From contig JAGLNZ010000301.1 of assembly GCA_023139225.1 (NCBI GenBank), positions 1 through 17,511 on the forward strand: a stretch of 17,511 bases of DNA, in the 5' to 3' direction. The notes beneath the pieces were generated by a model. The model was not told the DNA's origin. It was given only the letters and a program-made list of their open reading frames with translations, and ran no database searches. Origin of the DNA: Desulfobacula sp. Its GTDB lineage: Bacteria > Desulfobacterota > Desulfobacteria > Desulfobacterales > Desulfobacteraceae. The position numbers and the translations under genes are program-made. This document shows, in pieces, positions 205 to 13,072 of the stretch (position 1 is the first letter of the stretch; each line of letters starts with the position of its first letter).

Positions 205-2151
205 TTATTTACAATGTTTCTCATAGTTTTCACAAAGAGGTTGTCCATATGTCAGGGGTAATTCTCCGGTTCGAACTTTACCGTTTTCCAATTTAAGTGT
301 AATCCATTTATTCCAGTCAGGAGGATCAAGTTCAGCATGATCAAGGCGAAAGAAATCAAGGCTCTGACAGCTGGCCTTCCTTTCCCGGCATGCATGAATG
401 ATCATTTCACTGCATGTCAGGATATTCAAAACTTCCAGTGATCTTGTCAGTTTATGCGGGTTGTCAGCACAAAGGAAAGGAGCGCAGTTCTTTTTTAGAT
501 CTTCTAACCAGAGCAACCCTATTTTAAACAGCTCCTTATTTTTGTATTCCCCGCAGTAATTTTGCATGACCCTGCATATGGCAGAATTTAATTCCTTCCA
601 CTCTATCTGGTCATGGCCTTCAACTGTCAGGCTGTAAATTCGATCCTTTTCCCTGTCGATCTGGCTGCGACTTATACCAACAACGTCCGCAGCCAAAGCA
701 TATTGTGCTGCTTTTCTGCCCGCATATCGTCCTGTGGCAGCAGCATGATAATGATAGTTGCCTGCGTACAGGGCATCACCTGCTGCATAAAGTCCTTCCA
801 GGTTGGTTTTTAAATTCCAGTCAACAACCAGACCCCCTGCATCTCCAACTTCACCGGATGTCCTGTCCTGGGGTCGAACATTTGCACGCATGGGGTCACT
901 GCCTAAAAACAGGTAACTTTGAAGCAGATCTTTTTTTGGGTCAAATCCGGACTCAGTATAGGTCTTAATAATAGGAACTTTTGTTTTCCCTTCCTCGCCA
1001 ACCATAACACCCCAAATTACATTACGCTCATGTTCGGTCATCGACGTCAGATCAGCATATATTGGAAGGGTGAATTCTCCCTTTTTAATTCGTTCTTCAA
1101 GGTCAGGAATTATTTCAGGGCGTTTATGGTTGTAACAAAGGGTTCTTTCCCCCATGAATTCCTGCCCGGATGAGGGTTGCGTTCTTTCTTCCATTTTTTT
1201 TAAAATTTTTCCATCCCTGTCCACATAAGGAATTTCTTTTCCGTTCGCATCAACCAAAGTACAGGGTACCCATGTATTTATGGCATTTCCTGTGCCATAG
1301 GGTGGAAATACGTTACCGCTTCCAAATGATGTTGCTTTCGATTTTTCCATCATTGTAAACGCCGCACCGGCTTTCCAGGCCATTGCATGACCGTCACCCA
1401 CTATCTGAGGTGGTCTGAAATTTGCGATTCCCCGTATCTCGGTTGAAAAACTCCAGTTTCGCTGATGTCTTGACATGCAATTTATGAAAGCATTGGCCTT
1501 AAAAACAAACAATTCACCTGTGCGTGTATTCAGTCCGGTTGCGCCAATAACTCGGCTACCTGTCTTACCATCACAGGTCAGCAACTTGGTGGCCATAATT
1601 CTATCATATACTTTGACACCCAGCCGGTTGCACTCATTGAAAAGAGCCGGCTTAAAAGTGGTGCCCCAGATACGAAAATGCAGTCTGTTTTTATAATCAT
1701 ATGAAAAGAGAAACTTTGTTTTTTCATCTCTGAACGGAGCATCTTTGAATTCATCCTCAGTATCCCTGATTTTACCTCCTATTTTTTCAAGTTCCAGAAA
1801 AGTCTCATAACTTTCTCTGGCTGCAATATATCTGGAGATAAGATTTGTATATCCCTTACTGGCCTCCACCTCCCATTCAACCACCTGTTCGGCAGTTACT
1901 TTTGACCGGGGATTGGGCGTATTCACCCAGTGGTCACATCCTGCACCACCGGAACCGCTTCTTTGGGTAGCTCCTTTTTCAATTAAAATTACCTTTGCAC
2001 CTTGGCGGGCCGCGCTTATGGCTGCCCAGCATCCTGCGATCCCGCCACCCAGAACCACAACATCTACTTTAACTTGTGTTTCTTTACCGTATTCTATGGG
2101 ATAGGGCCACTGGGGGGCACCGTGTTTTTTAACGTATTCGTTCCAATTCAT
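205..2151 (-). CDS. FAD-dependent oxidoreductase, AprA/fumarate-reductase flavoprotein family
   Basis: A 648-residue flavoprotein of the FAD_binding_2 superfamily (succinate dehydrogenase, fumarate reductase and APS reductase alpha subunits). An N-terminal Rossmann motif GGGIAG lies at residues 35-40, with an acidic end to the second strand (IEKG, 57-60) and an 'RSGSGGAGCDHW' loop at 64-75. The second FAD-contacting motif GLYAAGD is at 453-459. A C-terminal helical region ends in an AprA-like 'ERKAS...DPPDWNKW' segment. No signal peptide is visible, so it should be cytoplasmic. The start codon overlaps the stop of the TRAP permease gene by 4 nt (ATGA), implying translational coupling; a ferredoxin gene follows. 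The long N-terminal extension before the Rossmann fold and the AprA-like C-terminus separate it from ordinary SdhA/FrdA. The genuine APS reductase is normally encoded with sat/qmo genes, absent here, so this is probably a paralogue acting on an imported organic acid or enone. The substrate cannot be read from the sequence. Confidence 0.88.
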   Translation of the reverse strand: MNWNEYVKKHGAPQWPYPIEYGKETQVKVDVVVLGGGIAGCWAAISAARQGAKVILIEKGATQRSGSGGAGCDHWVNTPNPRSKVTAEQVVEWEVEASKGYTNLISRYIAARESYETFLELEKIGGKIRDTEDEFKDAPFRDEKTKFLFSYDYKNRLHFRIWGTTFKPALFNECNRLGVKVYDRIMATKLLTCDGKTGSRVIGATGLNTRTGELFVFKANAFINCMSRHQRNWSFSTEIRGIANFRPPQIVGDGHAMAWKAGAAFTMMEKSKATSFGSGNVFPPYGTGNAINTWVPCTLVDANGKEIPYVDRDGKILKKMEERTQPSSGQEFMGERTLCYNHKRPEIIPDLEERIKKGEFTLPIYADLTSMTEHERNVIWGVMVGEEGKTKVPIIKTYTESGFDPKKDLLQSYLFLGSDPMRANVRPQDRTSGEVGDAGGLVVDWNLKTNLEGLYAAGDALYAGNYHYHAAATGRYAGRKAAQYALAADVVGISRSQIDREKDRIYSLTVEGHDQIEWKELNSAICRVMQNYCGEYKNKELFKIGLLWLEDLKKNCAPFLCADNPHKLTRSLEVLNILTCSEMIIHACRERKASCQSLDFFRLDHAELDPPDWNKWITLKLENGKVRTGELPLTYGQPLCENYEKHCK

Positions 2152-4061
2152 GCTTTTTCTCCAATTTGTTCTGATCTATAGTCAAAAGAGCTGCTCTGCC
2201 TTTTTTTTAATTGAATGCATGTCAAAATTACAAAGAAAATTATTCCTGTGAAAAATAATATATAATTTTGCAATATTAAATAAACTATTAATGAAAGACC
2301 GGCTAAAGTTGCCAGCATTCTTTCAACAAAATTACAATTGATAAAATAATATCCTACAAATGCCACTTCAAGAACAAAAAGACATACTATGCAGGCGGTT
2401 ATTCCAAAAATTGCCGGAATCAACGCCTGCGGTTGCAATAATAGTACAGGACAGTAAATGAACATAAAAGGTATGATGAATCCCCCAATGGCTGCCTTGG
2501 TCGCTTCTATGGCAGTTTTAATATATGGCGCCCCTGCCAGTTTCGCCGCAATAAGAGCTACAATTGCCACAGGGGGAGTAAGAAAAGCAAAGACTGCAAA
2601 GTACATGGTAAAAAAATGAGCCTGCTCAAACCCGACCCCCATTTTTACCAGTGCCGGGGCTGCAAACATTGATACTATGAAATAGGCAGTAAGAGAGGGG
2701 CCGCCCATTCCCATTACAACACAGATAGCAGCAATCAAAATAAGAGCTATAAGAAGATATCCACCGCTCCAGATCATGATGCCGGAAGAAAGTTTCACAC
2801 CAAGTCCACTCATGGTAACTGTTGCCATAATCAATCCAACGCATGCTGCCGATGCTGCAATACCGGCCCCGGCCCTTGCTCCTTTGACAAGCCCCTCAAT
2901 AATTTGTTTTATTCCAGGACGGTTATGCAGCTTGATATATGAGACTGCAACAGAACTGACTATTGCCCAGAAAGCAACATACATGATGCTGTACGATTTC
3001 ATGAGAAGAATCAGGATCACGATAAAGGGAACAACAAATGAAGGCAGGGAGAACAGCAATGCTTTGATATTTGTTTTTTCGGTATTTTCCTGCTTTATTT
3101 TTAATTGTCCTCCTCGAAAATAAACATAAAGCCCTGCCGCCCAGAAATAAAGCAGGGCAGGAATAATGGCCATTGTGATAATTTTAAGGTAAGGTATCCC
3201 GGTGATGCCTGCCATACCAAATGCAACAATTCCCATGATTGGGGGCATAATCTGTCCCCCGTTGGATGCAGATGCTTCAATAGCAGCAGCATGTTCGGGT
3301 TTATATCCAACTTTTTTCATAAGGGGTATGGTGAACGAACCGGTGATAGCAACGTTTGCTGCTGCACTTCCGGTAATTGAACCCACAAGCGCACTGCTCA
3401 CAATAGACATAATCCCGGGGCCACCCTGCATTTTACCGGCGATCAGATTTGCCAGTAACATGAAAAATTTTGTCCCTCCCAGGGCCTGCAGGAGCGCGCC
3501 AAAAATGACAAACAGAAAAATATAGTTGGCTGAAGTCGGCAGCACAATGCCATAGATTCCATTTTGAAGACCTATGGACAAATTGGAGATGGCCTGATCA
3601 AAGTCAAGGGTCTGGCAGCGAAAAGGTTCCGGTAACGATTGACCAACGATTGGATAAAGGACAACAAGGAGTGTAAGTCCGGGAAGTATCCATCCAAAAT
3701 CACGTCTGGTTGCCTCCAGTACAAGAACAACCAGAATAATTCCAATGACAAGATCCATATTGGTGTTAAAATAAGCACGGTTTTCAAGTTCAGGCCATAG
3801 GACTGCTACATATCCGATTGAAATAACAGTAAACAAAGATAGCAAGGCAGTAACAGATTTGTCCATAAATCTTTTTGCTTTTGTAAATCTATCCAGAAAT
3901 ATAATAAGAAGTCCGAATCCTAAATGCGCATTAATATGTGCTTTTGGAGCCAGTAACAATACCTGGCTGGCAGTCATGTGGTAAATTGCCATTGCCAGGC
4001 TCACGCCGATCACCAATATATAAACCTTATTTTCTGAAATCCTTGTGGATAGTTCGTTCAT
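2148..4061 (-). CDS. TRAP transporter permease, fused 4TM/12TM (DctQ-DctM fusion) of TAXI type
   Basis: A 637-residue, very hydrophobic inner-membrane protein that matches the length and character of fused TRAP permeases, in which small (DctQ-like) and large (DctM-like) subunits are one chain. The diagnostic conserved segment 'TGSAAANVAITGSF...IEASASNGGQIMPP' lies about a third of the way in, followed by 'MGMGGPSLTAYF' and 'FLTPPVAIVALIAAKLAGAPY' in the second half; these are typical DctM repeat loops. A GGAGG ribosome site precedes the ATG at 4061. The gene follows the TAXI receptor with a 45-nt gap and overlaps the downstream flavoprotein by 4 nt. Such permeases use an ion gradient rather than ATP to import a solute delivered by the periplasmic receptor. 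Some short hydrophilic tail residues (KKRQSSS) end the protein. Substrate unknown. Confidence 0.93.
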   Translation of the reverse strand: MNELSTRISENKVYILVIGVSLAMAIYHMTASQVLLLAPKAHINAHLGFGLLIIFLDRFTKAKRFMDKSVTALLSLFTVISIGYVAVLWPELENRAYFNTNMDLVIGIILVVLVLEATRRDFGWILPGLTLLVVLYPIVGQSLPEPFRCQTLDFDQAISNLSIGLQNGIYGIVLPTSANYIFLFVIFGALLQALGGTKFFMLLANLIAGKMQGGPGIMSIVSSALVGSITGSAAANVAITGSFTIPLMKKVGYKPEHAAAIEASASNGGQIMPPIMGIVAFGMAGITGIPYLKIITMAIIPALLYFWAAGLYVYFRGGQLKIKQENTEKTNIKALLFSLPSFVVPFIVILILLMKSYSIMYVAFWAIVSSVAVSYIKLHNRPGIKQIIEGLVKGARAGAGIAASAACVGLIMATVTMSGLGVKLSSGIMIWSGGYLLIALILIAAICVVMGMGGPSLTAYFIVSMFAAPALVKMGVGFEQAHFFTMYFAVFAFLTPPVAIVALIAAKLAGAPYIKTAIEATKAAIGGFIIPFMFIYCPVLLLQPQALIPAIFGITACIVCLFVLEVAFVGYYFINCNFVERMLATLAGLSLIVYLILQNYILFFTGIIFFVILTCIQLKKRQSSSFDYRSEQIGEKA

Positions 4062-4106
4062 TTTTAAGCCGCCCTCCGTTCAAAGGCTAAAAATCAGGCA
4101 TGTTTC

Positions 4107-5183
4107 TTATTTAATTCCAAATCCTGTAATAGGAACACTTTTTTCTTTAAAGAATTTTACTGCTGCAGGATGATATCCGTCTTTGGGAATACCCAAAGAG
4201 GCCATTGTGTCCTGAGTGATAATATTGCCCATGACAGTATATTCTTTGAAAGCAGAAGCATTCTCGTATACCACTCTTAGTATTTCCTTAACTACATGGT
4301 CCGGCATGGTGATATGTGCACAAAATCCTAATGGTTTAGCTAAGATATTGCAGGATTCTGTCTGGAGCGGGCCTAACATTTTTGGGGAAACTTGAGACAA
4401 AGACAGCGGGTGTCCGGTTTTTTTCTTAAAAGCATATACAGCTGTTTTATCAAAAGAAATATAATATACATCCTTTGTGGAAACCAATTCTGACTGGAAC
4501 GGGCTGTTAGCCCATGTTGCCGGAAGTTTTTTAAGCATGTGACCGGTATATATGACATCAACCATGCCGTCTCTTAACGTATCTGCGGCTCCTTTTCCTG
4601 CTGCATATTGAAATTTTATTTGATCTGTAGAAATGTTTCCTGCTTCCATAATACCTCTAATTGCGATATCACGGCTTTTACCCTTGCTTGAATCAAAGGT
4701 GGCCCGTTTGCCGGGTAAATTTTTCAAACTCTTTATTTGTGGATTCAGTGTACACAGTCCGTTGCCACCTACGCCCAAAAGTGTTACAAAACGAAATTCA
4801 TCATAGTCAAACGGAAAATTTTTGTAGGGGCCTATGCCTTTTTTGGCTTCCCAGATATCCCATGTTGTATTAAAAAAGAGGTAGTTTTTCCTTTTGGCGG
4901 GTTTTTTGATAAGTGTTTTCATGTTTTCCGCTGGTCCGCGTCCCTCCATGGCTGTGGCCTTCAGCCATGTGCTGTTTTTATTGATCTGTTCAGCTAACGC
5001 TACTCCCATGATATAAGATCCAAAACCTGCTGGCAGGGTTGGGATATAAATTTCAAACTTTTCTTGTTTTGCGGCACCATCAGCCATTAAAAGCGATGGA
5101 AACGTCATGATTAGTGCAAAAATTGTGACAATAAGCAAACGGCATAAGTGACGATTTTTTTTGAAGTTTTGTTTCTTTTTCAT
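4107..5183 (-). CDS. TAXI family TRAP transporter solute-binding protein
   Basis: A 358-residue periplasmic receptor. The N-terminus has a basic region (MKKKQNFKKNRH) and a hydrophobic core (LLIVTIFALIMTF), with probable signal-peptide cleavage near residue 34 after 'LLMADG'. The mature part begins with 'IYIPTLPAGFGSYIMGVALAEQI', the receptor opening typical of TAXI proteins, and ends with the 'YHPAAVKFFKEK' helix usual for this family. The ribosome site is AAGGAG, 6-7 nt before the ATG. It sits directly upstream of the fused permease, the standard TAXI-TRAP order. The substrate is not predictable, though TAXI systems often import dicarboxylates, amino acids or related organic acids. The internal segment 'PAKRKNYLFFNTTWDIWEAKKGIGPYKNF' region is longer and more aromatic than I expect for glutamate-type TAXI proteins, consistent with a less common ligand (inference). 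Confidence 0.9.
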   Translation of the reverse strand: MKKKQNFKKNRHLCRLLIVTIFALIMTFPSLLMADGAAKQEKFEIYIPTLPAGFGSYIMGVALAEQINKNSTWLKATAMEGRGPAENMKTLIKKPAKRKNYLFFNTTWDIWEAKKGIGPYKNFPFDYDEFRFVTLLGVGGNGLCTLNPQIKSLKNLPGKRATFDSSKGKSRDIAIRGIMEAGNISTDQIKFQYAAGKGAADTLRDGMVDVIYTGHMLKKLPATWANSPFQSELVSTKDVYYISFDKTAVYAFKKKTGHPLSLSQVSPKMLGPLQTESCNILAKPLGFCAHITMPDHVVKEILRVVYENASAFKEYTVMGNIITQDTMASLGIPKDGYHPAAVKFFKEKSVPITGFGIK

Positions 5184-5303
5184 TTTTTCTCCTTGTGTAA
5201 TGATAATAAATAATTAACCTTAAAAATAATCATACAACTGACTGTGAATTGCTCATCTTCTTTTAATTTTGGGAAGCACAGGCAAATTGGTAAAAATCAG
5301 CAC

Positions 5304-7079
5304 TTAGTGATCAACCGGAAGCTTGTCAAATTTAAAGGAACCACTCTTAGACTTCCGGACAGCCAGAAAGGCCAACCAGTTCTCATCATCCTGTTCAGGA
5401 TAGTCGGCCCTGACAAACCCAAGGGGACCTGGCCGACTCTCTTTCCTCTCAAGAGAGGATTGCAGGACAAGTTCGGCATTGTCGATGATTGATTTCACAT
5501 CCAGGCACCGACCCAGTTCATGGGGATTTTCCGCCCGGAGCGGAGCTGATTTAGCATCCTCAAGACGTTCGATCCCCCTGAGCAGCAATCCTTTGCTGCG
5601 GATGTCGCCACAGTAAAAATCCATCAGGTTCTGAACTCCGGTTTCTACCTCCCTCCAATGAAAACCTTCTCTTTGGTCCAGAATTTCTTCACATATCCGC
5701 TTTCTCTCCGTGAGATTCTCGTCTTTGACCACAAGAAATCCTTTTTGGGCTGCGGCCCTCCCGGCAGCCATGCTGCCGGCATGCCACCCTTGGGCGAAAG
5801 CCCCGGGGGATGCCTGCCAGGGAAGCCCTCCGACCTCATCACCGGCGCCGAAAAGATTCCTGATCTCCGTTTCCAGATCCTTATCCACCCACAGTCCTTT
5901 GGCGGAAGTACCGGAAATCTCTCTAGGCCAGGCTCCTACATATTCCTGACGGTTTTTTCTTAAATCTGCTCCCTCCTCTTCCTTGAAGTAACGCAAAAAT
6001 TGCCTGCCTTTTCCCTCATGGGAGATCGACCATTCTATATAAGCTGCCTCTTTGTCTGTGGCTTCGCTGAAATCCAAGTAAAAAGGTCCATCACCCGCAG
6101 CCAGACGTTTGACCAGCCCAGCTCTCCCGGAGCGCCACGCTTTCCGGTCTTCCAGCCACGTTTTTCTAACATCTTTTGTCCACTTCTCTTTTCCCAGGCT
6201 CTCCCAGTCATAAAACTGGGTTCTAGGGACGATTACATTACCCTTCCCGTCGATAATTCGAGCAGCGGGCTGAACTGTATTTCGAGGGTCTCCGTAATTG
6301 GGATTATAAAATCCGCAGGGACCCAACCCAAGGATATTGGTGAAGAACTCAATATTGATAATGGGCAATCCCGCCCGAATAGCCATTGAGGTGCCGTCTC
6401 CACTAAAGGGTGAGGGCATTCGGGTATTGAAATCAAATCCGTTGATATTGCGGCTCAGGCGATTGGAGCGACCGCTGGAAAGCACGACCGCCTTGGCCTT
6501 GAAAGATATGATATCACCCGTGCGGGTATTAACTCCCACGGCGCCGGCTGCCTGGCCATCCCGGATAAGCAGATCCGTCATCTGCACCCGGTTGATAATT
6601 TTTACTCCCCGCCTTCTGGCTTCCTTTGTCAACACGGGTTTCAGAGATTCACCATCGAAATTGAAAGAAGTGGGAACACTGTGAAATTGTGGAACAATAC
6701 GAAAGCCCCCCGGCACATTGCTGTCATCATATCTGAAATTAATACCGAATCGCTCCAGGTCCAGGACCCTGTCATACATGGTGCCCGCCACAAGATTAAA
6801 TAGATCCCGGCGGAAAAAACCATAGGCTGTGCCGACCCGATGGTCCTCAGCCATATCTTCCAGAGTGTAATTCATTTTTTTGTGAATGGGGGGTATATAG
6901 GACCAGACGTGGTCGATGCCGGCGGCCGCACAGCCGCTCCGCCGGGCATTGGACTTATCCACCAATGTGACACTTACCTTTTTGTCCTCGGAAGCTTTAA
7001 TGGCCGCCATACATCCGGCCAGGCCCCCTCCAATGATCAGCACATCGGTTTCAGCAGATATCACATTTGTTTTCAGCAT
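5304..7079 (-). CDS. FAD-dependent oxidoreductase, AprA-like (second paralogue, higher GC)
   Basis: A 591-residue flavoprotein of the same superfamily as the one at 205-2151. The Rossmann motif GGGLAG is at residues 17-22, 'ARRSGCAAAGIDHVW' at 45-59 matches the 'RSGSGGAGCDHW' loop of the paralogue, and the second FAD motif is 'NLFGAGD' at 408-414. The C-terminal 'SLERKESR...FVRADYPEQDDENW' again parallels AprA. A strong AGGAGA site precedes the ATG. It lies 21 nt after the upstream ferredoxin and probably forms a complex with it. The two flavoproteins are clearly diverged, so they likely catalyse different steps or form different complexes. Base composition stands out: several lines of this gene are 60-70% GC by eye, while surrounding genes are near 40-45%, hinting at a separate origin. 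It is followed by a 120-nt gap before the TAXI receptor gene, in which I see no convincing terminator. Confidence 0.87.
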   Translation of the reverse strand: MLKTNVISAETDVLIIGGGLAGCMAAIKASEDKKVSVTLVDKSNARRSGCAAAGIDHVWSYIPPIHKKMNYTLEDMAEDHRVGTAYGFFRRDLFNLVAGTMYDRVLDLERFGINFRYDDSNVPGGFRIVPQFHSVPTSFNFDGESLKPVLTKEARRRGVKIINRVQMTDLLIRDGQAAGAVGVNTRTGDIISFKAKAVVLSSGRSNRLSRNINGFDFNTRMPSPFSGDGTSMAIRAGLPIINIEFFTNILGLGPCGFYNPNYGDPRNTVQPAARIIDGKGNVIVPRTQFYDWESLGKEKWTKDVRKTWLEDRKAWRSGRAGLVKRLAAGDGPFYLDFSEATDKEAAYIEWSISHEGKGRQFLRYFKEEEGADLRKNRQEYVGAWPREISGTSAKGLWVDKDLETEIRNLFGAGDEVGGLPWQASPGAFAQGWHAGSMAAGRAAAQKGFLVVKDENLTERKRICEEILDQREGFHWREVETGVQNLMDFYCGDIRSKGLLLRGIERLEDAKSAPLRAENPHELGRCLDVKSIIDNAELVLQSSLERKESRPGPLGFVRADYPEQDDENWLAFLAVRKSKSGSFKFDKLPVDH

Positions 7080-7100
7080 CTCTTTTCTCCTGATTTTAAT

Positions 7101-7364
7101 TTATGCTGTGCCCTCCACAGATTTTTCAGTCCTTTTGAATGAACCTCTCATTTGAAAAGGAGTAATGATCTTGATCGCTCCTTGTTCTTTGTAATGACAA
7201 TCTGTAATGCAACATCCGCAAAACCAGCACTCATCGGGATACCTGACAAGCGGGGGCTTACCTTTTTTCGGGTTAAGGACAAACACGTCACTCATGCAAA
7301 TTTCCACACACATCCCGCAGCCGTCACAGATCTCTTTATTAATATAAATGTGATTGAATCCCAT
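7101..7364 (-). CDS. Two-cluster 4Fe-4S ferredoxin, AprB-like
   Basis: An 87-residue ferredoxin. Cluster I cysteines are at residues 13, 16, 19 and 23 (CDGCGMCVEIC). Cluster II is formed by the CWFCGCCITDC segment at 46-56, followed by QGAIKI. The 'CWFCG' start of the second motif and the 'GKPPLV-x-YPDECW' linker resemble the N-terminal part of APS-reductase beta subunits, though the long AprB tail is missing. I place the start at the ATG at 7364: an AAGGAG site lies 8 nt upstream, whereas an in-frame TTG at 7370 is only 2 nt from that site. It lies between the GntR regulator (42-48 nt gap) and the second flavoprotein and is probably the latter's electron carrier. It is a paralogue of the truncated ferredoxin at 1-184. 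Confidence 0.88.
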   Translation of the reverse strand: MGFNHIYINKEICDGCGMCVEICMSDVFVLNPKKGKPPLVRYPDECWFCGCCITDCHYKEQGAIKIITPFQMRGSFKRTEKSVEGTA

Positions 7365-7412
7365 GCTCAAATCTCCTTAATAATAAATGGTAACTTTTTG
7401 TGTTTCCATTTA

Positions 7413-8114
7413 TTATTCTTCTGTAGAAACCCTTTCAATATTTTGTTTCAGCATTTTTTTTGCCTTTATGATGTCACGTTGACCAATAGCTTCAATAATC
7501 CTTAAATGGTCTTCATAGGCAACCTTGAGAAATTCATCAGAAATTGTTGTTCCCGGATATGAAAAAATTAATTTATAAATAGCTTTTAAAAAATTGATTA
7601 TTAAAGGATTGTCAGAAATTTTTGCAAGGGCAAGGTGAAACTGAAAGTTCAATTCGGCATGTTGCTTTCTGTTTTCCGGTTTAATAAACCTTTCATTCAA
7701 ATCTGTGAAACTCTGAATATCTTTTTCACTGGCATCTTTCACTGCTGATTTTATTGCTTCTAATTCAATAGCTTTCCGTACCTGTTGGAAATGATGGATT
7801 TTAAGTTTGCCGTTTCTGTGCAAATCTTTCATAAAAACCGTGATGGGCTTAGAAGAATCATAAACAACAACAGAACCGCCTTTGGCGCCCAGCTTAGGTT
7901 CTATAAAGCCTGCATATTCCAAAGCAAATAACGCTTGTTTGATTACTGCACGACTGACATTAAATAGTTCTGATAGTTTTCTTTCAGCCGGAAGCCGATC
8001 TCCAGTTTTAAATTTTTGACTAAGTATGAGAGATTTGAGTTGTCTGGCAACATTGGCCGACAAGGTTTCTTTGCGAGGCGGCACTATAGAATTTTTAATA
8101 TCGATGATACTCAT
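7413..8114 (-). CDS. GntR-family transcriptional regulator, FadR/FCD subfamily
   Basis: A 233-residue regulator. The N-terminal winged helix-turn-helix spans about residues 15-80 with the hallmark 'TGDRLPAERKLSELFNVSR' and 'ALEYAGFIEPK' segments. The C-terminal all-helical FCD effector domain (about 95-225) contains 'NFQFHLALAKISDNPLI' and 'YEDHLRIIEAI', whose histidines are the usual metal ligands of FCD domains. FCD regulators typically sense small carboxylic acids and repress catabolic or transport operons. A GGAGG site lies just before the ATG. It is the first gene of the long minus-strand operon, so autoregulation together with the TRAP and flavoprotein genes is expected. The ligand is probably the transported substrate or a derivative (inference). 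Confidence 0.92.
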   Translation of the reverse strand: MSIIDIKNSIVPPRKETLSANVARQLKSLILSQKFKTGDRLPAERKLSELFNVSRAVIKQALFALEYAGFIEPKLGAKGGSVVVYDSSKPITVFMKDLHRNGKLKIHHFQQVRKAIELEAIKSAVKDASEKDIQSFTDLNERFIKPENRKQHAELNFQFHLALAKISDNPLIINFLKAIYKLIFSYPGTTISDEFLKVAYEDHLRIIEAIGQRDIIKAKKMLKQNIERVSTEE

Positions 8115-9573: not shown

Positions 9574-10788
9574 ATGAATTTGTTTGCCATATTGTCGAAT
9601 ATCAGGCTACCGGATATCCTTGATATTGCGTTTATCTCCATTGTTGCCTATCAACTCTATTTATGGTTCTGGGGAACCAAAGCCTTTAAAGCCCTTATAG
9701 GCATAATTGTTTTAAGCGGGGTTTTCATTGTGGCCAATTCCTGGGGGCTTTTTTTAACCACCTGGGTGTTTCAGATTTTGTGGCAGGTTTTTGTTATTCT
9801 CCTGATTATCCTGTTTCAAAAAGAAATCAGGCAGATGCTTGAGCGGTTTAATCCCCTGAAAACTATAGGATTTAAGCATGATTCTACTGCGGATGGCTGG
9901 ATACCCGGGTTTGCCGACTGGGCCTTTGATGCGGCAAAAAAGAGAATCGGTGCAGTCATTGTTTTTGAAAGAACGGATCTGGTGTTTGATTTAATCACCA
10001 AGGGGATTGCCATGGAATGTGATCCCCAGCCTGAAATATTGAATTCCATTTTTTATAAGGAATCGCCTTTGCATGATGGCGCCAGCCTTATTTCCAATGG
10101 GAAAATTTTAAAAACATCCTGCTACCTGCCTTTGACAACAAGGGAAGATCTGCCCCAGGAATGGGGGACAAGACACAGGGCATCTTTAGGTTTGACTGAA
10201 CAATGCGATGCCTGGGTAATGATTATTTCAGAGGAAAGAGGGGAAGTCTCATTTGCTGTTGATAAGGAAATTCAAAAGGTAAAAGACCAAAAGGAATTGT
10301 CTGGTCTTTTAAAAGATAAGGTCTTTGAGTTTAAAGAGCCGGAGACAGATATCAAAGATAAAATAAAATCATGGTTTACCCGGCGGTATCAAATTAAGGC
10401 TGCTGTTTTTACATCGGTTTTTATTCTGTGGCTGGTCTTGGCCGGACAACAGAATTTTGAAAAAAAAATAGTTCTGCCCTTGAATTTTAGAAACACTCCG
10501 ACAGAGCTTATTTTGTCTCAACCGGTTGATCCCAAAATTTTTATTACCTGTCGCGGGCTTAGAAAAGATGTCAGTCTGTTAACTGAAAATAATGTCATCG
10601 CTTCACTTGATTTGTTTTCAGCACGGATTGGGACATCGGTTTACAATATTAACACGGGAAATTTGACCCTGCCTAACGACAGAATTCATATTGTAAACAT
10701 CAGTCCGTCAAGGATTGAGCTGACATTTGAGGAAAGGCTTCAACCAAAGATAGAAGACAAACCTTCCATGGAAAAAGAACCCATATAA
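9574..10788 (+). CDS. dacA: Membrane diadenylate cyclase (CdaA/DacA type) fused to a YbbR-like domain
   Basis: A 404-residue protein that should make the second messenger c-di-AMP from two ATP. Three N-terminal membrane segments (about 16-34, 38-57, 62-82) are followed by a DisA_N/DAC catalytic domain (about 100-235). The signature residues are HDGA (167-170) and GTRHRASLG (198-206). A fourth membrane segment lies at about 275-291. The remaining residues (about 295-388) resemble one YbbR repeat: 'LPLNFRNTPTELIL', 'PKIFITCRGLRKDV', 'VIASLDLFSARIGTSVYNI' and 'IVNISPSRIELTFEERL'. In Firmicutes the YbbR protein CdaR is a separate regulator encoded beside cdaA; here both activities appear to be in one chain, with the YbbR part expected outside the membrane. 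The start has an AAGG site. No glmM is seen nearby. The upstream neighbour is phosphofructokinase. Confidence 0.9.
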   Translation: MNLFAILSNIRLPDILDIAFISIVAYQLYLWFWGTKAFKALIGIIVLSGVFIVANSWGLFLTTWVFQILWQVFVILLIILFQKEIRQMLERFNPLKTIGFKHDSTADGWIPGFADWAFDAAKKRIGAVIVFERTDLVFDLITKGIAMECDPQPEILNSIFYKESPLHDGASLISNGKILKTSCYLPLTTREDLPQEWGTRHRASLGLTEQCDAWVMIISEERGEVSFAVDKEIQKVKDQKELSGLLKDKVFEFKEPETDIKDKIKSWFTRRYQIKAAVFTSVFILWLVLAGQQNFEKKIVLPLNFRNTPTELILSQPVDPKIFITCRGLRKDVSLLTENNVIASLDLFSARIGTSVYNINTGNLTLPNDRIHIVNISPSRIELTFEERLQPKIEDKPSMEKEPI

Positions 10789-10812: not shown

Positions 10813-11277
10813 TTAATTTGTCAGACTTTCAGGCAGAGTTATTATATATGCTTTGATCTCGTCTCTGACTCTTCTGTAGCAGTCAAGTTTTTTTTGGGGG
10901 TCTTTATAGTGTTCTGCCATTTTGGGCGGATCATCAAAGCCCATATGAATTATCTTGTCGGCACCGGGAAACCAGGGGCATGTTTCATGGGCATGGCTGC
11001 ATACCGTGATCACATAGTCAAAGGATTTATTTTTAAATTCATTCAGGTGTCGGGATTTATGGCGGGATATATCCACCCCTGCCTCAGCCATGACTATGAC
11101 TGCGTGGCGGTTTAATCCATGGGTTTCAATCCCGGCAGACCAGGCGTCAATGAAATTTCCCTTTAAATGTTTTGTCCAGCCTTCGGCCATCTGGCTTCGA
11201 CATGAGTTGCCGGTACAAAGAAACAGTATTTTCAATTTATCAGATTTTGTTTTATCAGATTTCAATTTATCAGGCAT
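10813..11277 (-). CDS. arsC: Arsenate reductase, thioredoxin-coupled ArsC (LMW phosphatase fold)
   Basis: A 154-residue cytoplasmic enzyme that reduces arsenate to arsenite. The P-loop CTGNSCRSQMAEG is at 21-33 (nucleophile Cys21). The redox pair Cys93 and Cys100 (VITVCSHAHETCPWFPG) has the same 7-residue spacing as in the Bacillus subtilis type enzyme, and an 'DDPPK' loop near 115-119 supplies the acid. The protein starts with a lysine-rich, repeat-like tail (KLKSDKTKSDKLK) encoded by three copies of a TTTATCAG-type unit (plus-strand reading), which is not part of the fold. There is no convincing Shine-Dalgarno before the ATG, and an upstream in-frame stop rules out a longer form. It lies 38 nt after the extended end of hgcB, so it is probably the last gene of the nitroreductase-arsR-hgcAB operon. 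It converges with the diadenylate cyclase gene. Confidence 0.93.
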   Translation of the reverse strand: MPDKLKSDKTKSDKLKILFLCTGNSCRSQMAEGWTKHLKGNFIDAWSAGIETHGLNRHAVIVMAEAGVDISRHKSRHLNEFKNKSFDYVITVCSHAHETCPWFPGADKIIHMGFDDPPKMAEHYKDPQKKLDCYRRVRDEIKAYIITLPESLTN

Positions 11278-11315: not shown

Positions 11316-11606
11316 TCAGCAGCACCCGCTGCCGCCGCAGGATGCATTCTCTTTTCCCTTTATCCAGACCTGGATAATATAGGAGGCTCAGCCGACACCC
11401 GGACTGACGGATATCGCCTGGGAAGGGCAGTTGTTAACACAGGCGCCACATTCCATGCATGCATTGAAATCAATAATATGGGCCTTGTTCTGTCTCATTT
11501 CAAAAACACCCCGGGGGCAGACTTCGGTGCATAAACTACAGCCGATACACTTTTCTTCATTAAGTACCAGGGTTGATACATCATCTAAATATCTTAAATC
11601 TTTCAT
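11316..11606 (-). CDS. hgcB: HgcB, mercury-methylation ferredoxin, with predicted selenocysteine at residue 73 (UGA at 11388-11390)
   Basis: HgcB is the [4Fe-4S] ferredoxin that works with HgcA in making methylmercury. Cluster I cysteines are 20, 23, 26 and 30 (CIGCSLCTEVCP); cluster II cysteines are 50, 53, 56 and 60, including the HgcB hallmark CMECGAC. A simple reading ends at a TGA after 'SVSPGVG' (residue 72). In the same frame the sequence continues ASYIIQVWIKGKENASCGGSGCC and then stops at TGA 11316-11318. That gives 96 residues with a Cys95-Cys96 end. Known HgcB proteins, as I recall, are about 95 residues with an essential Cys at 73 in a 'GVGC' context and a terminal Cys pair, so the UGA replaces exactly that Cys. 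A SECIS-like hairpin lies just downstream. An AGGA site precedes the ATG; hgcA lies 19 nt upstream. Alternatives are a nonsense mutation or sequencing error, giving a 72-residue truncated form ending at 11388. Confidence 0.88.
11360..11377 (-). promoter_or_regulatory. hgcB: Putative bacterial SECIS element within hgcB
   Basis: Minus-strand RNA reads UUAUCCAGGUCUGGAUAA, giving a perfect 7-bp stem (UUAUCCA/UGGAUAA) with loop GGUC. The loop starts 18 nt after the UGA, inside coding sequence. In the E. coli fdhF SECIS, as I remember it, the apical loop is also GGUC closed by an A-U pair and starts 19 nt after the UGA, so loop, closing pair and spacing nearly coincide. The bulged U of the fdhF stem is not evident here. 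Recognition by SelB is inferred; no sel genes lie in the window. Confidence 0.8.
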
Positions 11607-11625: not shown

Positions 11626-12792
11626 TTAAAATGCAGAATATATCCAAAGCCCGGATGAAATAACAAGGCTTGCCAATTGCACGGGAATGTAACGTTTCAT
11701 CTCTTTTTCAACGCCGGAGGGGGAGGTAAACGGTGTTGTCCCTGTAAAATTCATGGCCAGATAAGAACTGATGGTCACGCTGAATAAAAAAAGTGCCGGG
11801 AATTCTGCCACGCCGTTAACGGCAGATGAAATCAGAACCAAAAGGAGAGTGGCAAAAATACTTCCGGTAATTATTCCCTTGAGAGCAAATTCCCTGGAAG
11901 GAATAAAGGGAAGCAGGACAGGAGTGATAAATGCGCCTGACAATATCCCTGCTGCAAGAGCAAAAAAAGAAAAGACCCCTCTTTCCCAGGCTTGGGAAAA
12001 AGAAAAAATACCAGGGCCTATGCCTGAAATGATGAACAGGATAAGTGCTGTAAAAAGTGCCGGTTTCAATACGATTTGAACCTCCACAGGTGTCAGGATA
12101 AACCGTTCATACAGATTAAATGTGACCTGTCGCATTTTTTTGTCTGCTTTTTTATTGTTTTTTAAAAAGGCCGGGATATCACTGGCTCGTATCGGACCAT
12201 ATACCACCCTGAATCCTGCCTTGCTTTTAACATCCCTTGCCGATACGCCGGTTGCGCCTAACTGGGGAACAATGATCCGTTTGTGATCCACAATTTTTTC
12301 AAGGGAAGAATCTTTAATTTTTTTCACAAGTTCCCGGGTTGAAAAGGTTCCCTTTCCTGCGGCACACCAGACATTAATCCCTTTTGTATCCAGTACCAGA
12401 ATCCATGCATTGATGTTATTAAGTTCCTTTCTTAAATGATCAAAAGTCAATTTAAAGTTTGCAGTAACAATCACCTCGCAATTTTTATCCGGTTCTCCGA
12501 TACCATAAAGTCCGGGAGCCACGGTATATTTATACCGATTGATACCGCATCTGACATAAAAGGCTGAAAAAAGATCATTTTTTTCAAGTTTTGGTTTAAT
12601 GACAGGGATAAGCCCTGCATCGGTTTTGATAAATCTGTCCACATAGGAACACAACTTAAACCCGGGTTTTTCATATTCAGCCATGGGGTTGGAGGGTTCA
12701 GGGCCACAGCTTGAAGTGATCTCATCCATGGAGGACATGATATTGATACCGGATGTGGATATTTTTAAGTTTTGTTGAGTTTTTTTATCCAT
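11626..12792 (-). CDS. hgcA: HgcA, corrinoid protein of mercury methylation
   Basis: HgcA carries a methyl-corrinoid that transfers a methyl group to Hg(II). The 388-residue chain has a soluble corrinoid-binding domain (about 40-225) containing the diagnostic cap-helix motif NVWCAAGK at 140-147; Cys143 is the equivalent of the cobalt-ligating cysteine (Cys93 in strain ND132, from memory). A C-terminal membrane domain follows with five hydrophobic segments near 241-262, 273-297, 304-325, 331-350 and 371-388, and the conserved loop 'NFTGTTPFTSPSGVEKEM' near 348-365. The start at 12792 has AAGGA 10 nt upstream. The N-terminus is about 50 residues longer than ND132 HgcA and includes a Cys at 29; internal Met codons at 19 and 22 are alternative starts without better ribosome sites. 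It lies 13 nt after arsR and 19 nt before hgcB, clearly co-transcribed. Confidence 0.97.
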   Translation of the reverse strand: MDKKTQQNLKISTSGINIMSSMDEITSSCGPEPSNPMAEYEKPGFKLCSYVDRFIKTDAGLIPVIKPKLEKNDLFSAFYVRCGINRYKYTVAPGLYGIGEPDKNCEVIVTANFKLTFDHLRKELNNINAWILVLDTKGINVWCAAGKGTFSTRELVKKIKDSSLEKIVDHKRIIVPQLGATGVSARDVKSKAGFRVVYGPIRASDIPAFLKNNKKADKKMRQVTFNLYERFILTPVEVQIVLKPALFTALILFIISGIGPGIFSFSQAWERGVFSFFALAAGILSGAFITPVLLPFIPSREFALKGIITGSIFATLLLVLISSAVNGVAEFPALFLFSVTISSYLAMNFTGTTPFTSPSGVEKEMKRYIPVQLASLVISSGLWIYSAF

Positions 12793-12805: not shown

Positions 12806-13072
12806 TTATAGGTTTTGGATATAATGCTTAAATTTATTTAAAACGATTTTATCCACGCAGAAGTAGGTTTTCGGGCCTTCGATTTCTCCACAGACAATGC
12901 CGGAGTCTTTTAACAGTTTCAGATGCTGGCTGATAGTAGATTGGGAATAGGGAAAGATATTGACAATTTCTCCGCAAACACAGGTGTTGATATCAATAAG
13001 GTGCTCAATGATTTTTACCCGTGTGGGATGTCCCAATGCTTTAAATATTTTTGCAAGTTGTTCTGTGTCCAT
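12806..13072 (-). CDS. ArsR/SmtB-family metalloregulator
   Basis: An 88-residue winged-helix repressor. 'FKALGHPTRVKIIEHL' (10-25) opens the fold and 'SQSTISQHLKLLKDSGIV' (43-60) is the recognition helix region. A CVC pair at 31-33 (NTCVCGEI) matches the ELCVCDL arsenite site of ArsR, and further cysteines are at 61 and 72. It could therefore sense As(III), Hg(II) or another thiophilic ion. It lies 27 nt after the nitroreductase and 13 nt before hgcA, and the operon also ends in arsC, so it is the natural candidate to control this unit from the promoter at 13928-13956. I recall arsR-like genes next to hgcAB in other methylators. No strong Shine-Dalgarno precedes the ATG, so translation may depend on coupling to the upstream gene. 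Confidence 0.92.
   Translation of the reverse strand: MDTEQLAKIFKALGHPTRVKIIEHLIDINTCVCGEIVNIFPYSQSTISQHLKLLKDSGIVCGEIEGPKTYFCVDKIVLNKFKHYIQNL

What the first reader, a model, noticed from the sequence alone, without database searches (positions are those of the whole stretch)
11316..11606. HgcB appears to be a selenoprotein: in-frame UGA at codon 73 replaces the essential Cys
Seen: the hgcB frame meets TGA at 11388-11390 after 'PGVG', then continues open for 23 codons to a second TGA, encoding a tail that ends SCGGSGCC. Known (from memory): HgcB proteins are about 95 residues, have a strictly conserved Cys at position 73 in a 'GVGC' context and end in a Cys pair; mutation of Cys73 damages methylation in strain ND132. 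The UGA falls exactly at residue 73 and the tail restores the Cys pair (95-96). Inference: Sec73 replaces Cys73. A selenolate binds Hg(II) more tightly and is more nucleophilic than a thiolate, so it would alter how HgcB takes up Hg(II) or passes it to HgcA. It would also tie methylmercury formation to selenium supply. Automated annotation would give a 72-residue protein lacking the functional tail. I do not recall Sec-HgcB being described.
Basis: partly seen in the sequence, partly recalled or inferred. Interest (0 to 1): 0.96.

Follow-up and report, generated by a model that had tools for sequence, protein, structure and literature searches.

The report
Selenocysteine form of mercury-methylating HgcB
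In this bacterium the gene for HgcB, one of the two proteins predicted to make methylmercury, has a UGA codon exactly where other HgcB proteins have a cysteine, and the cell likely reads it as selenocysteine; the same codon stands there in dozens of related genomes and the selenium form was already in print, so this is a new member of a known group.

Summary
hgcB (11316-11606, minus strand) has an in-frame TGA at codon 73 (PGVG-U), then 23 codons ending in a Cys pair. Read through, it passes NCBI's HgcB cut-off (125 vs 99 bits) and lies 19 bases after hgcA. The same TGA stands in 58 loci from a scan of 84,980 species genomes, including Desulfospira joergensenii, Desulfocicer vacuolatum and Desulfamplus magnetovallimortis. 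After it comes a hairpin with an AGGUCU loop like E. coli fdhF; three of its Ile codons never vary in 61 sequences. selA, selD and tRNA-Sec are in the window's genome; selB was not found there (77% complete) but is in all nine relatives tested. Sec73 is very likely (0.94). It is not new: a 2026 review lists HgcB 'GVGU', citing Haft & Gwadz 2023, which I could not read. Beyond what I saw in print: Cys-type genes with the same protein motif nearly have the hairpin already; HgcA's N-terminal Cys pair is intact in 6 of 56 Sec-HgcB operons against 90 of 100 others; and Sec in HgcA (22 rows) never accompanies Sec-HgcB. That link is suggestive, not statistically established.

The parts
11316..11606 (-). 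hgcB: 96 residues read through U73, stop TGA at 11318-11316
   Evidence: NF040864 HgcB_ferredoxin 125 bits (cut-off 99), residues 5-96 on profile 1-93
11388..11390 (-). in-frame TGA at codon 73 (Cys73 column, GVGU)
11360..11377 (-). SECIS-like hairpin: stem UUAUCCA/UGGAUAA, four-base loop GGUC (AGGUCU if the closing A-U pair is counted as loop); 16 bases lie between the TGA and that A
   Evidence: same AGGUCU in E. coli fdhF
11319..11387 (-). 23-codon tail after the TGA (ASYIIQVWIKGKENASCGGSGCC); Cys95-Cys96 at 11319-11324
11517..11549 (-). first CxxCxxCxxxC motif, Cys20/23/26/30
   Evidence: sequence
11427..11459 (-). second CxxCxxCxxxC motif, Cys50/53/56/60
   Evidence: sequence
11626..12792 (-). 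hgcA, with cap-helix motif NVWCAAGK; N-terminal pair aligned as Ser-Cys (SSCGPEP); no in-frame TGA
   Evidence: (NF040863 431 bits, cut-off 275)
10813..11277 (-). arsC-like gene 38 bases downstream of hgcB
   Evidence: TIGR02691 138 bits, below its cut-off of 174
12806..13072 (-). ArsR/SmtB-family regulator upstream of hgcA
   Evidence: NF033788 69 bits (cut-off 55)

Best explanation
The gene at 11316-11606 (minus strand) encodes a mercury-methylation ferredoxin, HgcB, whose in-frame UGA at codon 73 is predicted to be read as selenocysteine in place of Cys73. SelB with Sec-tRNA would bind the hairpin that begins 10 bases after the UGA, whose AGGUCU loop matches that of E. coli fdhF, and insert Sec. 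The full protein would then carry two [4Fe-4S] clusters, Sec73 at the start of its helical extension, and a C-terminal Cys pair. By analogy with the published HgcAB model, where the tail thiols carry Hg(II) to the corrinoid and pass CH3Hg+ to residue 73, Sec73 would be the seleno-ligand that takes and releases CH3Hg+ or Hg. Shown by sequence: the UGA, its position, its recurrence, the frozen hairpin, the conserved tail, and selA, selD and tRNA-Sec in the genome. Inferred: Sec incorporation and every chemical role.
For: Read-through protein 125 bits against the HgcB model, cut-off 99, beside hgcA at 431 bits. TGA at the Cys73 column in 10 of 77 order genomes with an above-cut-off HgcB and in 58 of 59 pattern hits in genome contigs, including three named species. 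The stem TTATCCA/TGGATAA is 7 of 7 paired in all 58; codons +4, +5 and +9 are ATT, ATC and ATA in 61 of 61 Sec sequences, while other Ile columns vary (ATT 42, ATC 10, ATA 5 at -29; ATA 27, ATT 8, ATC 6 at -8). Loop codon +7 is Val (GTN) in 59 of 61, with a free third base; of 118 Cys rows only 2 have Val there, and those two pair at only 4 and 3 of the 7 stem positions. The tail is under protein selection: A+15 is 61 of 61 using four codons, G+11 61 of 61 using four, C+17 61 of 61 using two. E. coli fdhF has AGGUCU 17 bases after its UGA, against 16 here. Own genome: tRNA-Sec 73 bits, over its cut-off, selA 599 bits, selD 364 bits and itself with one in-frame TGA. selB over its cut-off in 9 of 10 Sec-HgcB genomes. 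C73A abolished methylation in ND132 (passage of PMC7305189).
Against: selB was not found in the window's own genome (five matches, all below the cut-off; 77% complete, 752 contigs). The hairpin is not exceptionally stable by itself: z -1.09, 31 of 200 shuffles fold at least as well, and no Rfam family reaches its gathering score in the window. Two of the 58 loci (L176, L180) have GGGC in the loop, without GU. Two Cys-type rows outside the order (L130, L131) have the same Val in the loop codon, so Val alone does not mark Sec. Five of 60 tails do not end in CC: L172, L173, L204 have no CC before the next stop codon, L178 and L198 have it one or two residues in. Because the stem never varies there is no covariation to count. 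No protein-level evidence exists here.
Confidence: 0.94

Rival explanations
1. Sec73 is inserted only when selenium is plentiful; otherwise UGA ends translation and a 72-residue HgcB without residue 73 and tail accumulates, so the codon works as a selenium-dependent switch on methylmercury formation.
For: Follows from how UGA recoding works (established knowledge, not tested). The 72-residue product would still carry both cluster motifs.
Against: Nothing tested here shows a role for the short form; early termination is a known by-product of UGA recoding in general (recalled).
Confidence: 0.12
2. UGA is a true stop and this HgcB is a 72-residue protein without the tail.
For: A plain open reading frame ends there.
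Against: The tail is conserved at protein level with free synonymous sites in 61 sequences; C73A abolished activity and the double tail-Cys mutant lost 95% in ND132 (PMC7305189 passages).
Confidence: 0.02
3. The TGA is a sequencing or assembly error for TGC or TGT.
For: The window comes from a fragmented assembly of 752 contigs.
Against: Same codon in 60 other Sec-type sequences including three named species, with a Val loop codon in 58 of them and a frozen stem.
Confidence: 0.005
4. UGA is read through as another residue (for example Trp) by a near-cognate tRNA or an altered code.
For: None found; not formally excluded without mass spectrometry.
Against: All other HgcB sites read at this column have a Cys codon (71 of 71 non-TGA sites, 118 of 118). 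UGA is also the terminal stop of this very gene. tRNA-Sec, selA and selD are present.
Confidence: 0.01

Closest known systems
Sec-containing HgcB (NF040864, motif GVGU; Haft & Gwadz 2023 as cited in PMC13188914 Table 1)
   Same: Same family, same residue, same GVGU motif.
   Different: Apparently nothing in kind; this is a further member from another genome. I could not read the 2023 paper, so I cannot say which genomes or SECIS it showed.
HgcB of Pseudodesulfovibrio mercurii ND132 (Cys73, Cys94, Cys95; PMC7305189 passages)
   Same: Cluster cysteines 20, 23, 26, 30, 50, 53, 56, 60 and the residue-73 site carry the same numbers; C-terminal Cys pair.
   Different: UGA instead of a Cys codon at 73; the pair is at 95-96 instead of 94-95.
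Sec-containing HgcA (N-terminal CU; PMC13188914 Table 1; 22 rows here)
   Same: The other subunit of the same complex, also a Cys-to-Sec change.
   Different: Different subunit and site; not found together with Sec-HgcB in the 56 Sec-HgcB rows examined.
E. coli formate dehydrogenase H (fdhF) SECIS
   Same: Stem closing on AGGUCU shortly after the UGA.
   Different: 17 bases between UGA and loop there, 16 here; unrelated protein; a longer fold in fdhF.

Membership tests
HgcB (NF040864) | Score over the curated cut-off along the whole profile | tested here: met
   125 vs 99 bits, profile 1-93 of 93, read with TGA as a residue
HgcB (NF040864) | Two CxxCxxCxxxCP cluster motifs | tested here: met
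   residues 20-31 and 50-61
HgcB (NF040864) | Cys (or Sec) at position 73 in a GVG context | tested here: met
   U73 by in-frame TGA; 71 of 81 order-level sites have Cys, 10 have TGA
HgcB (NF040864) | C-terminal Cys pair and adjacent hgcA | tested here: met
   Cys95-Cys96; hgcA 19 bases upstream at 431 bits
HgcB (NF040864) | Mercury methylation activity with HgcA | not testable with these tools
   needs a culture assay
bacterial selenoprotein | In-frame UGA aligned with a conserved Cys of homologues, seen in several genomes | tested here: met
bacterial selenoprotein | SECIS hairpin with GU in the loop shortly after the UGA | tested here: met
   7-bp stem and GU loop here; stem in 58 of 58 loci, GU in 56 of 58. 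Function of the hairpin not tested
bacterial selenoprotein | selA, selC and selD in the genome | tested here: met
bacterial selenoprotein | selB in the genome | tested here: inconclusive
   not found in the 77%-complete own genome; over cut-off in 9 of 9 other Sec-HgcB genomes
bacterial selenoprotein | Selenium detected in the protein | not testable with these tools
   needs 75Se labelling or mass spectrometry

The most novel reading that the evidence does not exclude
HgcAB carries its selenium at one of two mutually exclusive places that do the same job, the Hg or CH3Hg hand-off: Sec73 of HgcB, or the N-terminal Cys-Sec pair of HgcA. Once HgcB gained Sec73, the HgcA pair became dispensable and decayed (intact in 6 of 56 Sec-HgcB operons, 90 of 100 Cys-HgcB operons; Sec in that pair in 22 of 100 and 0 of 56). 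HgcB could gain Sec because the codons for its I-Q-x-W-I motif already fold into a near-SECIS hairpin, so a TGY-to-TGA change plus a Val codon in the loop were nearly enough, and this may have happened twice.
Probability: 0.3. Interest if true: 0.72.

Novelty: new member of a known kind. Interest (0 to 1): 0.48.

Why it matters
Methylmercury is the form of mercury that accumulates in fish, and selenium is known to affect mercury biology (general knowledge). A methylation subunit that itself contains selenium would tie the two directly. The loci found here include two DSM strains, so the question can be tested in culture. The exclusivity of the two selenium sites, if real, would point to where mercury is handed over inside HgcAB, a step that is still open.

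Tried and rejected
Truncation, sequencing error and another residue at UGA were weighed and set aside (see rivals). A single RNA fold gave no strong signal (z -1.09); I relied on frozen synonymous codons instead. Covariation was not counted because the stem never varies. No Rfam family reached its threshold in the window. A phylum sample of 395 genomes (115 with an above-cut-off HgcB; some of the 395 are of the same order) gave TGA flags in six above-cut-off matches. Only the window's own lies at column 73; four others (G412, G231, G399, G460) look like ordinary terminal stops after CC or CAC, and one (G449, L132) is in the tail.

One or two origins: the HgcA tree puts 55 of 56 Sec rows in one clade with full support and one (L050, genome G154) apart, next to a Cys row, L042. 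On a 75-row subset a tree forcing one clade is not rejected (p-AU 0.295), so two origins are possible, not shown. L050's hgcB is nearest to Cys genes before the TGA and to Sec genes after it, which convergence or local recombination could both give. The careful tree did not finish; quick trees are used.

Link between Sec73 and decay of the HgcA pair: there are only 2 independent contrasts; over random pairings the pair goes the expected way in 1.0 of them, the other way in 0.1, and does not differ in 0.9, so no test is possible. Parsimony changes of the first Cys are 7 of 10 inside the Sec clade, which holds 11.5 of 55.1 of tree length (p 0.0011); for the whole pair 6 of 16 (p 0.097). First regex counts misplaced some rows, including the window's, and were replaced by an alignment. 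One search flagged one Sec-HgcB row, L051, with CU in the HgcA frame; it lies before the likely start Met and does not fall in the aligned pair. Of the 22 rows counted as Sec in the HgcA pair, 19 have adjacent CU and 3 (L022, L070, L085) do not. The N-terminal region is loosely aligned, so single rows may be wrong.

Rows dropped before counts: 14 loci as copies of the same contig, L195 as chance, and HgcA matches under 270 aligned residues or 270 bits; 156 of 182 loci with an HgcA match remained. L159 has too little hgcB for the protein match, hence 60 tails against 61.

Operon neighbours are not fixed: of loci of 4 kb or more, arsR-like in 31 of 59 Sec and 15 of 58 Cys, arsC-like in 5 and 2, the nitroreductase-ferredoxin in 2 and 0. 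The stretches held differ in flank, so these are lower bounds.

Full report
WHAT IS THERE. The gene lies on the minus strand, 11606 to 11316. Codon 73 is TGA (11390-11388) after PGVG; 23 codons follow and end SCGGSGCC, then a TGA stop. Read through, it matches NCBI's HgcB model with 125 bits against a cut-off of 99, over profile positions 1-93. The eight cluster cysteines fall at 20, 23, 26, 30, 50, 53, 56 and 60, the numbers given for ND132 HgcB in PMC7305189 (passages). hgcA (431 bits, cut-off 275) ends 19 bases upstream and has the NVWCAAGK cap-helix motif.

IT RECURS. In 194 genomes of the same order, 77 have an HgcB over the cut-off. Of 81 HgcB sites read, 10 have TGA at column 73 and 71 have TGC or TGT. 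The ten come from ten genomes. A scan of genome contigs (84,980 species) with a pattern that fixes GVG-TGA-Ala and YII but does not choose among Ile codons gave 59 loci, of which 58 are HgcB. They include Desulfospira joergensenii DSM 10085, Desulfocicer vacuolatum DSM 3385 and Desulfamplus magnetovallimortis, besides many Desulfobacula, Desulfotignum and Desulfamplus assemblies. L176 and L179 share one assembly, so by accession prefix 58 loci are 57 genomes. The pattern cannot see Sec forms without Ala-x-YII. In a phylum sample (395 genomes, 115 with HgcB over the cut-off) no genome but the window's own had TGA at this column among the above-cut-off matches.

THE HAIRPIN. In all 58 loci and the window the bases after the TGA hold TTATCCA - four loop bases - TGGATAA. 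Over 61 sequences (58 plus the window, G016 and G051) codons +4, +5 and +9 are ATT, ATC and ATA without exception, CAG 60 of 61, and +7 is Val in 59, with all four third bases. Isoleucine codons elsewhere in the same genes vary. This freeze below the protein level, in a stem that presents GU in its loop, is what a SECIS would require. E. coli fdhF, fetched as a yardstick, has the same AGGUCU 17 bases after its UGA, against 16 here. Against it: the fold alone is not striking (z -1.09), and L176 and L180 have GGGC in the loop.

WHERE THE HAIRPIN COMES FROM. Among 32 Cys-type genes of the order sample with a YI(I/L)Q-x-W motif, 28 already pair at 6 or 7 of the 7 stem positions; of all 71 Cys sites, 31 do. 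None of the 32 has Val in the loop codon: 21 have Thr, 10 Ser, 1 Lys. Over all 118 Cys rows read, two have Val there (L130, L131, both outside the order), with only 4 and 3 stem pairs. So the protein motif I-Q-x-W-I itself encodes most of the stem, and the Sec type adds the TGA, a Val codon in the loop and fixed Ile codons. That may explain why Sec73 is seen in this HgcB type. This is inference, and the scan could only see this type.

THE MACHINERY. The window's genome (77% complete) has tRNA-Sec (73 bits), selA (599 bits) and selD (364 bits, itself with an in-frame TGA). selB was not found there, but is over its cut-off in the nine other Sec-HgcB genomes searched, including one of the same genus.

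THE TAIL IS CODING. After the hairpin, columns Gly+11, Ala+15 and Cys+17 are invariant in 61 of 61 sequences while their codons vary. Of 60 tails, 55 end in CC; L172, L173 and L204 have no CC before the next stop codon, L178 and L198 have it slightly inside. A true stop at codon 73 would not leave this pattern. In ND132, C73A abolished methylation, and loss of both tail cysteines removed 95% of it (PMC7305189 passages).

HISTORY AND THE PARTNER SUBUNIT. On a tree of 156 HgcA proteins, 55 of the 56 from Sec-HgcB operons form one clade with full support; L050 sits apart beside a Cys row, but on a 75-row subset one origin is not rejected (p-AU 0.295). HgcA's N-terminal Cys pair is intact (Cys or Sec at both aligned positions) in 90 of 100 Cys-HgcB rows and 6 of 56 Sec-HgcB rows. 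The second position is Sec in 22 of the 100 (19 of them adjacent CU) and 0 of the 56. Many of those 22 fold a stem-loop after their TGA, and the trait changes 8 times on the tree. L179, the first branch of the Sec clade as drawn, keeps Cys-Cys; L050 has Cys-Gly and its Cys neighbour L042 Cys-Cys. I read this as possible redundancy of two mercury-handling sites. With two independent contrasts, of which about one goes the expected way, it cannot be tested statistically; the rate of change of the first Cys is higher inside the clade (p 0.0011), that of the pair not clearly (p 0.097).

MECHANISM. Cooper et al. propose that the tail thiols bring Hg(II) to the corrinoid and deliver CH3Hg+ to Cys73, from where a thiol releases it (PMC7305189 passages). 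Sec73 would occupy that place. That selenolates bind Hg(II) more tightly than thiolates is general knowledge, recalled; its effect here is untested.

PRIOR ART. PMC13188914 (2026 review; passages and table rows seen) lists HgcB with GVGU, WP_250697400.1, and HgcA with CU, citing Haft & Gwadz 2023. PMC11588087 (2024; passages seen) says that some hgcA and hgcB homologues may be selenoproteins. The 2023 paper itself is not held, so I cannot say whether it discussed the hairpin, the clade or the exclusivity. Six searches for HgcB, hgcAB or hgcA with selenocysteine, selenoprotein and related terms listed no other paper that by its title treats Sec in HgcAB (listings only, apart from the two papers above). 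PMC12013277 (deep-Sep) has no mention of Hgc.

VERDICT. A real selenocysteine-type HgcB by sequence, very likely functional, and a new member of a group already in print. What may be new is how the hairpin arose and its relation to HgcA.

Noticed in passing
L132 (genome G449), HgcB tail: An in-frame TGA in the HgcB tail (PPDUSDGCG...SCC), a possible Sec at a tail cysteine; a single case.
   Followed up: partly
L053 (genome G180) and L173: Single in-frame TGAs inside a cluster motif (CSGUGEC) and in a tail next to a Cys (SCUDSGCC); could be errors or odd Sec sites.
   Followed up: no
22 HgcA rows such as L032, L061, L142, L083: Sec at the N-terminal Cys pair of HgcA (19 of 22 as adjacent CU), many with a stem-loop shortly after the TGA; the trait changes 8 times on the HgcA tree.
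   Followed up: partly
HgcA alignment column 163 (RCGI in the window's HgcA): A Cys in 40 of 56 Sec-HgcB rows and only 6 of 100 Cys-HgcB rows; an added thiol of unknown role.
   Followed up: partly
L176 and L179 (one assembly): Two Sec-hgcB loci in one assembly, one with the GU loop and one with GGGC.
   Followed up: no
G016:C62:115833-117874: A second selB (303 bits) directly beside a second tRNA-Sec (53 bits) in one genome, perhaps a second Sec insertion set.
   Followed up: no
window 205-8114, minus strand: Two flavoproteins of the fumarate-reductase type, a ferredoxin, a DctM-type transporter with an NMT1-like binding protein, and a GntR-FCD regulator: looks like an uptake and oxidation cluster for an unknown substrate.
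   Followed up: partly
window 9574-10788, plus strand: A CdaA-type protein with a DAC domain, convergent with the hgcAB-arsC genes.
   Followed up: no
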